DNA of 41,408 bases, from NCBI GenBank assembly GCA_021413925.1, contig JAIOPL010000015.1:1-41408 (forward strand). The letters are read 5' to 3'. The position numbers and the translations under genes were made by a program. Under the pieces are notes generated by a model. It searched no databases. It was not told the DNA's origin and saw only the letters and a program-made list of their open reading frames with translations. Of the stretch, positions 3,820 through 17,608 are shown piece by piece. Each line of letters starts with the position of its first letter. Within the stretch, counting starts at the first letter, position 1. This stretch comes from Verrucomicrobiota bacterium (GTDB taxonomy: Bacteria; Verrucomicrobiota; Verrucomicrobiia; Chthoniobacterales; UBA6821).

Positions 3820-3860
3820 TCTGTCTTGAGAGCTATTTTTTAACCTAACAGTCTAATAGT

Positions 3861-3956
3861 ATTGACGCCACTGCCCTCTCGGGAAGCAGTGGCGCCCTGC
3901 GGGCTACGACTTCCTCGTAGTCTACCGCGCATCATCCCAGATGCTTGGTTCAGCCT
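3861..3956. repeat. Triple-hairpin repeat, copy A
   Basis: Three hairpins in a row followed by a conserved tail. Hairpin 1 pairs CGCCACTGC (3866-3874) with GCAGTGGCG (3886-3894). Hairpin 2 pairs CTACGA (3904-3909) with TCGTAG (3915-3920). Hairpin 3 pairs GCATC (3929-3933) with GATGC (3940-3944), loop 6 nt. The tail is TTGGTTCAGCCT (3945-3956). Copy B at 5445-5538 has the same order, the same hairpin-3 geometry and the same tail but different, compensating stem sequences. The copies are direct repeats flanking the FAD oxidase gene. Confidence 0.75.
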
Positions 3957-3970
3957 AACAGCCTTTCAAA

Positions 3971-5446
3971 TCAGACAAACTTTCCGGGGTTCAGGATGTC
4001 TTTCGGATCGACGGCGGATTTGATCCGCTTGTGCAGGTCACGGAGTTCAGGAGAGGTTGCCTCGTTCCACCAGCGTTTCTTGGCCAGGCCGATGCCGTGC
4101 TCTCCGGTGATCGCTCCTCCCCACTTGATGACCTGGGTAAAGAGAGCGTCGAGGACCCCTTCGATCTCCTTGGGACGCTTGGCCTGCTGTTCCTTGGAGA
4201 CCATGACATTCACATGGATGTTGCCGTCCCCGGCGTGACCGAAGCAGGCGATCGGGAAGCCGGTCTTTTTCTGCAGTTTCTCCGCGAAAGCGATGAGGTC
4301 GACGAGGCGTCCGCGTGGGACGGCGATATCCTCGTTGAGCTTGGTGAGGCCGGTGGCCTTGAGCGAGGCAGAGAAGGCACGGCGTAGGGCCCAGATCCGT
4401 TCGCAGCGCTCGGGGGAAGTGGCGAGTTCCACCTCGAGGGCTTTGTTCTTTGTAAGGAGGGCCTTAAGAGCCTTTCCTTCGCTGAGGACACTAGCCTTCT
4501 GGCCGTCGAGTTCGACAAGCAGGTGAGCCTTGCCGGGAGGGATGAAGGTTCCCTTCAAATCCCCCGTTACTTCTTTTGGGGCGTTGCGGGCTGACTGGAG
4601 GGTGAAGCTATCGGCCACCTCCATGGCGCAGGGGAGGTAGCCGGCCTTGAAGATCGCCTGCACGGCGGCTGCTGCATCGCGCATCGATCCGAATCCGGCG
4701 GAAAGGGTCACGCGGGCGGGAGGCAAGGGAAGGAGTCGCAGGGTCGCCTCGGTGATGACTCCGAGCATTCCCTCGGAGCCGACGAACATTCCGACAAGGT
4801 CAAAGCCGGTCTTGTTCTTGTGGGTGCGTCCACCGACCCGGATGAGGGTGCCGTCGGCGAGGGCAACCTGAAGTCCTAGCACATAGGGACGGGTGACGCC
4901 GTACTTGAGGCAACGGGGACCCCCTGCATTGGTGGCAATATTGCCGCCAAGGGAGCAGTCCTTGTAGCTCTGAGGATCGGGCGGGTAGAAGAGCCCTTTT
5001 TTGATAACCTCCGTCTGAAGCACTCCCGTAATGACATTCGGCTCTACGACGGCGACGAAGTCCTCTCCGTTGATCTCCCGGATGCGGTTCATCCGGTGCA
5101 TGCTCATGAGAATGCCTCCCCGCACAGGAACGCATCCGCCGACATAGCCATGGCCAGCGCCGCGTGTGGTCACGGGGATGTCGTGCTTATTCGCATAGCC
5201 GAGCACTGCGGCGACCTCCTTGGCGTTTCCAGGTGCAACAGCGATCTCGGGAAGAGCCGAGGCAAACCACTTGTCCCTGCCGAGTTCGGCTAGACGCTCA
5301 GGATTAATGATGACCCCGGCCTTGGTCGGGATGAGTTTGCGGAGATCCCGCTCGAGAGAAGGATGAGATTTGAAACGTGAAGCCTGATGAGGTGAGGAGG
5401 GAATACGTTTATTGGATCCCTTCTTTTTCTTTTCAGGTTTCAACAT
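3971..5446 (-). CDS. GlcD-type FAD-linked oxidase
   Basis: An FAD-dependent 2-hydroxyacid dehydrogenase of the D-lactate dehydrogenase/glycolate oxidase (GlcD) family. The N-terminal half is the PCMH-type FAD domain: VTTRGAGHGYVGGCVPVRGG, then GLFYPPDPQSYKDCSLGGN and the glycine/asparagine stretch IATNAGGPRCLKYG. The C-terminal domain carries ACFGHAGDGNIHVNVM and GAITGEHGIGLAKK, the usual flavin and substrate histidines. The frame is open up to 5551, but the first 35 codons of that longer form are encoded by triple-hairpin repeat B, so the ATG at 5446 (MLKPEKKKKGSN) is the more likely start; this form has 491 residues. It lies right after fabI on the same strand. Substrate (D-lactate or glycolate) cannot be told. 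Confidence 0.9.
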   Translation of the reverse strand: MLKPEKKKKGSNKRIPSSPHQASRFKSHPSLERDLRKLIPTKAGVIINPERLAELGRDKWFASALPEIAVAPGNAKEVAAVLGYANKHDIPVTTRGAGHGYVGGCVPVRGGILMSMHRMNRIREINGEDFVAVVEPNVITGVLQTEVIKKGLFYPPDPQSYKDCSLGGNIATNAGGPRCLKYGVTRPYVLGLQVALADGTLIRVGGRTHKNKTGFDLVGMFVGSEGMLGVITEATLRLLPLPPARVTLSAGFGSMRDAAAAVQAIFKAGYLPCAMEVADSFTLQSARNAPKEVTGDLKGTFIPPGKAHLLVELDGQKASVLSEGKALKALLTKNKALEVELATSPERCERIWALRRAFSASLKATGLTKLNEDIAVPRGRLVDLIAFAEKLQKKTGFPIACFGHAGDGNIHVNVMVSKEQQAKRPKEIEGVLDALFTQVIKWGGAITGEHGIGLAKKRWWNEATSPELRDLHKRIKSAVDPKDILNPGKFV

Positions 5447-5538
5447 TGATGGCACTTGCCTCCCGGCAAGCCGTGCCACCGCTGACGGGCTGCCTTCGGC
5501 AGTCTTCCGCGTCGCTTCCCTGCGACTTGGTTCAGCCT
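5445..5538. repeat. Triple-hairpin repeat, copy B
   Basis: Same plan and orientation as copy A at 3861-3956. Hairpin 1: GGCAC...GTGCC with inner TTGCC/GGCAA (5451-5477). Hairpin 2: CTGCC (5490-5494) with GGCAG (5498-5502). Hairpin 3: GTCGC (5511-5515) with GCGAC (5522-5526), loop 6 nt. Tail TTGGTTCAGCCT (5527-5538). It lies between the fabI stop codon and the preferred start of the FAD oxidase, inside the open frame of the latter. Confidence 0.75.
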
Positions 5539-17421: not shown

Positions 17422-17527
17422 GTCTTTTAGCGTGGGACAGCGTTGCTGCTCGGTCGGCGTAGGGCTACTAAGCCCTCCCTCGCTCGCCTAGCCCCGCATT
17501 CAAACTTCCAAGCCTTTTACAGAAATA

Positions 17528-17608
17528 GCGGGTTCGAATTCCGCCAACCCGAGTCTCGGTTTTTTCCGAGGACTCCTTCGCTCTGAAGAGGTTCCAGAGG
17601 GATGGAGG
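17528..17608. repeat. T-arm-flanked hairpin repeat, copy 1
   Basis: An 81-bp unit. It starts GCGGG TTCGAAT TCCGC, which folds like a tRNA T-arm, continues CAACCCGAGTCTCG, has a variable middle that can form a small hairpin (CTTC...GAAG) and ends TTCCAGAGGGATGGAGG. Copy 2 at 18176-18256 is also exactly 81 bp, with the same flanks and a different middle hairpin. Upstream, between gyrA and this unit, is a further hairpin AGGGCT-ACTA-AGCCCT (17461-17476). Confidence 0.6.

What the first reader, a model, noticed from the sequence alone, without database searches (positions are those of the whole stretch)
3861..5538. Two triple-hairpin repeats with covarying stems flank the FAD oxidase gene
Seen: copies A (3861-3956) and B (5445-5538) share AGTCT-CCGCG and TTGGTTCAGCCT blocks and a three-hairpin order. 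Stem sequences differ but pair in both: hairpin 3 is GCATC/GATGC in A and GTCGC/GCGAC in B with identical 5-bp stem and 6-nt loop, so three base pairs changed on both sides. Hairpins 1 and 2 behave the same way. Covariation means the folded form (RNA or single-stranded DNA) is under selection. Known: REP/BIME elements moved by RAYT transposases and some structured RNAs look like this. The family here is not one I recognise.
Basis: seen in the sequence. Interest (0 to 1): 0.75.

Follow-up and report, generated by a model that had tools for sequence, protein, structure and literature searches.

The report
Mobile four-hairpin intergenic DNA repeat
The two hairpin-rich stretches beside this gene are copies of a roughly 87-base mobile DNA element, present in about 40 copies in this lake bacterium's genome, that inserts cleanly without duplicating its target; its folded shape appears to matter for moving rather than for the neighbouring gene, and the enzyme that moves it was not found.

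Summary
Copies A (3862-3948) and B (5446-5530) belong to a dispersed family: 41 strong copies in this 2.4-Mb genome and 3-76 copies in 14 of 15 other members of the genus, but none in the sister genus with this model. A pattern scan of 84,980 species hit almost only Spartobacteria/Chthoniobacterales MAGs. Covariation is overwhelming: 26 of 31 pairs change on both sides, 0/500 shuffles. There is no Rfam match.

The link to the FAD-oxidase gene is incidental: both sites are empty in most relatives. Empty sites show precise insertion with no duplication, in front of TTC.

Covariation does not mean in-place RNA selection. Helices show no clear G-U excess (42 G·T, 64 A·C), orthologous copies lose pairs without compensation (0 compensated, 14 broken), and gene orientation is mixed.

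Best reading: a non-autonomous mini-element recognised as folded single-stranded DNA, IS200/IS605- or REP-like in behaviour. No cognate transposase was found, so membership is not claimed.

The parts
3862..3948 (+). Copy A of the element (TTGACGCC...GATGCTTGG)
   Evidence: 99.7 bits with model R1; empty in G001 and G008, occupied in G005
3866..3894 (+). Copy A hairpin 1 (with 3' bulge; loop TCTC)
   Evidence: fold; pair counts
3894..3904 (+). Copy A hairpin 1b GCCC/TGC/GGGC, competing with the foot of hairpin 2
   Evidence: sequence; helix 3 (91.5% of cells paired)
3904..3920 (+). Copy A hairpin 2 (CTACGA/TCGTAG)
   Evidence: fold; 7 of 7 pairs covary across the family
3925..3948 (+). Copy A hairpin 3 (CCGC-GCATC-ATCCCA-GATGC-TTGG, conserved C/T mismatch)
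   Evidence: fold; 9 of 10 pairs covary across the family
3949..3956 (+). Target-site DNA TTCAGCCT right of copy A, not part of the element
   Evidence: TTCAGCC present in the empty G014 site; G001 and G008 carry close variants
5446..5530 (+). Copy B of the element (TTGATGGC...CGACTTGG)
   Evidence: 81.9 bits with R1; occupied in G000 and G006, empty in G009, G010, G011, G012
5450..5478 (+). Copy B hairpin 1 (loop TCCC)
   Evidence: fold
5490..5502 (+). Copy B hairpin 2 (CTGCC/GGCAG)
   Evidence: fold
5507..5530 (+). Copy B hairpin 3 (CCGC-GTCGC-TTCCCT-GCGAC-TTGG)
   Evidence: fold
5531..5538 (+). Target-site DNA TTCAGCCT right of copy B, not part of the element
   Evidence: present in empty G009 and G012 sites
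3971..5446 (-). FAD-linked oxidase gene between the copies; the ATG at 5446 is made by the insertion junction
   Evidence: PF02913 and PF01565; most orthologues align only from residue 11-30 of this frame

Best explanation
A non-autonomous mobile mini-element of about 87 bp that moves as folded single-stranded DNA. SHOWN: dispersed family; four adjacent covarying hairpins; precise insertion without target duplication or loss (the boundary is ambiguous by a shared TT), in front of TTC and often inside 7-8-bp tandem tracts; pairs decay after insertion. INFERRED: the active strand is the complement of the + strand, 5'-..GAA^CCAAG-[H3]-[H2]-[H1b]-[H1]-GTCAA^-3'. An enzyme supplied in trans recognises the hairpins, cuts at the two feet and pastes the strand behind a GAA-ending target, as HUH Y1 transposases of IS200/IS605 or REP systems do. 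Stems are free to change while the shape must hold for the next move, so lineages of mobile copies differ by paired changes and settled copies rot. The enzyme is unknown. Confidence: mobile element about 0.95; fold acts in mobility rather than in place about 0.75; HUH-type single-strand mechanism about 0.45.
For: Copy number and distribution. Occupied and empty alleles at both window sites and gap-free joined flanks at further insertions, some into other repeat families. TTC right of the element in most of 83 copies, TTCA in 44. Covariation beats every shuffle and every slid control. No RNA-like G-U excess. In orthologous insertions 14 pair-breaking, 2 G-U and 0 compensated changes (with one pair set aside as separate insertions and one as an internal duplication). 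Mixed gene orientation. Complement strand folds better in about 104 of 125 copies with DNA parameters and 108 with RNA parameters. IS608 also inserts without duplication and its right cleavage site is TCAA (PMC5934647), the same as this element's end on that strand. Two identical copies with different flanks suggest recent movement.
Against: No cognate transposase: Y1_Tnp found in only 2 of 16 genus genomes; the own-genome gene is surrounded by a different repeat and no element was found beside it. The bias relative to GC skew, expected for lagging-strand insertion, is weak (Wilcoxon p 0.03, sign test p 0.16). No invariant guide tetranucleotide was found. The shared TT at both ends would equally fit recombination with a 2-bp core. 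A four-base match to the IS608 site could be chance.
Confidence: 0.5

Rival explanations
1. Mobile mini-element moved by a site-specific recombinase or IS110-like enzyme through a double-stranded circle with a TT core; hairpins serve as binding sites or as a small guide RNA.
For: TT is shared at both boundaries and target, and exact head-to-tail junctions CTTGG|TTGACGG occur.
Against: No inverted core-type repeats at the ends; loops are only about 4 nt, too short for the guide loops of known bridge RNAs (own knowledge). No enzyme of these kinds was searched for.
Confidence: 0.2
2. A REP family proper whose RAYT was lost from most genomes; expansion happened earlier.
For: Intergenic, many copies, structured, no target duplication; CGTC-type REPs also lack a dedicated transposase (PMC3733652). 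The two genomes with Y1_Tnp hits, G006 and G000, have high copy numbers.
Against: Length 87 bp with four hairpins against 20-40 bp with one; neighbours mostly head-to-tail (32 direct, 7 inverted), unlike BIMEs/REPINs; GTAG before hairpin 2 in only some copies; no RAYT with cognate copies among the loci fetched from six genomes of other genera, though not all hits were fetched.
Confidence: 0.2
3. A structured RNA (regulator, terminator or small RNA) that spread and is selected in place.
For: Very strong covariation, stable RNA folds, GNRA-like GGGA loops on the complement strand.
Against: No clear G-U excess, uncompensated decay between species, mixed orientation to genes, empty in most relatives, no Rfam match.
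Confidence: 0.07
4. Pairing is kept by mutation, not selection: template switching during replication rewrites one stem arm from the other.
For: Two-sided changes with few intermediates; such template switching is documented for RNA hairpins (PMC8794818). Fully compatible with the best explanation.
Against: Orthologous copies show uncompensated decay, not repair; conserved loops, mismatch and bulge need another cause.
Confidence: 0.2

Closest known systems
REP / BIME / REPIN elements moved by RAYT (TnpA-REP)
   Same: Short, intergenic, many copies, palindromic with stem subfamilies keeping complementarity (PMC2817692, PMC3733652); imperfect stems; no target duplication.
   Different: REPs are 20-40 bp single hairpins with a GTAG/GTGG or CGTC foot, often in inverted pairs and with a flanking RAYT; this is 87 bp, four hairpins, mostly head-to-tail, no cognate RAYT found.
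IS200/IS605 ends (IS608) and their non-autonomous derivatives
   Same: Precise insertion without duplication beside a short target; imperfect hairpins near both ends; right end TCAA as in IS608 (PMC5934647).
   Different: No tnpA/tnpB, no autonomous partner found, guide sequences not identified, extra hairpins between the ends.
Integron attC sites
   Same: Structure kept while stem sequence varies; conserved unpaired bases (own knowledge of attC).
   Different: attC is one long hairpin whose two ends pair; here the ends lie in separate hairpins and do not pair. Not a member.

Membership tests
REP/RAYT | 20-40 bp single hairpin with GT[AG]G at its 5' foot | tested here: not met
   87 bp, four hairpins; GTAG before hairpin 2 on the complement strand in copy A, GAAG in copy B, so no invariant tag
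REP/RAYT | RAYT gene flanked by cognate copies | tested here: not met
   Y1_Tnp in 2 of 16 genus genomes; own gene surrounded by CCCAACGGG...CCCGTTGG repeats; R1/R2 find no family copy beside it or the G006 genes; only a short element-like fragment upstream of one G006 gene
REP/RAYT | Inverted pairs (BIME/REPIN) | tested here: not met
   32 direct and 7 inverted neighbours under 400 bp (includes weak matches and regions chosen for clusters)
REP/RAYT | High copy number, intergenic | tested here: met
   gene calls behind the context are rough
IS200/IS605-derived mini-element | Insertion without target duplication beside a fixed short target | tested here: met
IS200/IS605-derived mini-element | Subterminal hairpins and recognisable cleavage sites/guides | tested here: inconclusive
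   Hairpins met; GAA^ and TCAA^ ends suggestive; guides not identified
IS200/IS605-derived mini-element | Autonomous partner with tnpA sharing its ends | tested here: not met
   incomplete MAGs and diverged enzymes could hide one
IS200/IS605-derived mini-element | Orientation bias relative to replication | tested here: inconclusive
   weak GC-skew bias
DDE-type MITE | Terminal inverted repeats and target duplication | tested here: not met
   ends TTGACG / CTTGG are not inverted repeats; no duplication beyond the ambiguous TT
Integron attC | One hairpin whose terminal R boxes pair with each other | tested here: not met
   folds and pair counts put the two ends in separate hairpins
Rfam RNA family | Covariance-model match | tested here: not met

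The most novel reading that the evidence does not exclude
A new kind of mobile mini-element: a chain of four hairpins, defined by shape more than by sequence, that inserts cleanly before TTC in tandem-repeat tracts and is moved by an enzyme that is neither a RAYT nor a known IS200/IS605 transposase.
Probability: 0.25. Interest if true: 0.75.

Novelty: new variant of a known kind. Interest (0 to 1): 0.52.

Why it matters
It gives a clean case in which strong covariation marks a mobile DNA rather than a cis-acting RNA, a caution for RNA discovery by comparative genomics. With 3-76 copies per genome and both occupied and empty sites across related species, it also makes testable how structured mini-elements move without a visible transposase, an open question for REP-like DNA.

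Tried and rejected
Rfam at gathering and loose thresholds: nothing relevant. RAYT as the mover: no cognate pair. IS91-type Y2 transposase: no hit, but the control did not ring, so uninformative. Recurrent gene near copies: mostly orthologous neighbourhoods; the PF05635 four-helix gene recurs but looks like a shared hotspot. Phages, plasmids, viral contigs: no match. attC and DDE MITE: rejected on end structure. Target duplication of 7 bp: tandem tracts suggested it, but empty sites already hold the tract. Literature: no description of this family found in the papers searched.

Full report
WHAT IS THERE. The window lies in a 2.4-Mb, 95.5% complete genome of 32 contigs. Copy A (3862-3948) sits between a PIN-domain gene and the end of an FAD-linked oxidase gene; copy B (5446-5530) sits between that gene and an enoyl-ACP-reductase-like gene. 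Both fold better than shuffles.

A FAMILY. BLAST with copy A found 21 places in the genome; a covariance model from 11 copies found 41 matches above 45 bits plus a tail at 19-35 bits that includes a diverged second subfamily ending in GTATT. The mean pairwise identity of the 41 is 73%, nearest neighbours 72-100%. In the genus, 15 of 16 genomes have copies (3 to 76); the sister genus has none with this model, and a handful of weak matches occur in other families of the order. With a broader model one sister-genus genome gives a single match, one genome of another family gives 13, and one of the class gives 1, out of 289 across the phylum. These distant relatives keep the layout with quite different stems; as the models favour that layout, this is suggestive rather than proven homology.

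STRUCTURE. On 47 own-genome and 58 relative sequences, 90-92% of cells pair; 26 of 31 pairs show changes on both sides; no shuffle of 500 reaches any observed measure, and slid structures score at most about a sixth of the observed covariation. The alignments were fitted to the structure, which inflates absolute values but hardly a contrast of this size. Constant features are the TCCC-type loops of hairpins 1 and 3, a bulge in hairpin 1, and a G-T plus C/T mismatch at the foot of hairpin 3.

MOBILITY. Orthologous FAD-oxidase loci in the genus show copy B in G000 and G006 but not in G009, G010, G011 and G012, and copy A in G000 and G005 but not in G001 and G008. Removing the element and joining its flanks aligns without gaps to empty sites at these two loci and at several further insertions, including insertions into other repeat families (some of those comparisons are to paralogous repeats). 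So nothing is duplicated or lost; only a TT shared by both ends leaves the boundary open by two bases. The base run after the element is TTC in most of 83 copies. Flanks are richer in 7-8-bp periodicity than other ORF-free DNA (19% against 7% above the cut, p about 1e-8). Copies also occur head-to-tail with exact junctions.

WHERE SELECTION ACTS. If the fold worked as RNA in place, G-U should exceed A-C in helices; outside two special pairs the counts are 42 and 64 on the + strand, a mild lean to the other strand at most. Orthologous insertions differ by 14 pair-breaking, 2 G-U and no compensated changes once one case of separate insertions (L108/L206) and one internal duplication are set aside; three of those comparisons share one locus, so the sample is small. 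Orientation to neighbouring genes is mixed (15, 8, 13, 8), on rough gene calls. I conclude that shape matters while copies move, or that arms are rewritten by template switching (PMC8794818), not that each copy serves its locus.

MECHANISM. Clean insertion beside a short target, hairpins at both ends, better folding of the complement strand and the TCAA end shared with IS608 point to single-strand cut-and-paste by an HUH Y1 enzyme in trans. That step is inferred. The genome's one Y1 hit is surrounded by its own, different repeat; only 2 of 16 genus genomes have a Y1 hit; and elements were not found beside the Y1 genes fetched from other genomes, apart from one weak match at 27.6 bits whose sequence does not resemble the family. 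I therefore say it works like an IS200/IS605 or REP element and do not file it as one.

VERDICT. A real, apparently undescribed, genus-level family of mobile mini-elements.

Noticed in passing
flanks of many copies, e.g. L147, L151, L078; window 3840-3860 and 3949-3965: Intergenic DNA of this genus holds many degenerate 7-8-bp tandem tracts (TCGACCT, AGTCTAAC, TTCAACCC, TTTCAGG), similar in style to cyanobacterial STRRs; origin unknown.
   Followed up: partly
L150 (G000:C6:174500-179500): The genome's only Y1-type transposase gene is surrounded by a separate palindromic repeat, CCCAACGGGTTCAYCCCGTTGGAGCGCAAGTTC, likely its own REP family.
   Followed up: partly
window 17448-17530: Member of another repeat family (GTAGGGCTACTA...GCCTAGCCCCGCATTCAAACTTCCAAGCC) in which some four-hairpin elements in relatives are inserted.
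   Followed up: no
L221 (G000:C1:131558-131869), L223 (G000:C4:101416-101712): Two of six PF05635 four-helix-bundle genes of the genome lie within 60 bp of a copy; association or shared hotspot not settled.
   Followed up: partly
window 5444-5446: The ATG of the FAD-oxidase frame is created by the copy B junction and is absent from empty alleles, so the native start is probably further inside the gene.
   Followed up: partly
L198 (G006:C53:11000-17040): Cluster of ten or more nested and tandem copies in 6 kb, with elements inserted into one another.
   Followed up: partly
L117, L118: Two contigs titled Akkermansiaceae MAG16 carry copies with the same score as copies in MAG15 of the same study; probably mis-binned.
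   Followed up: no
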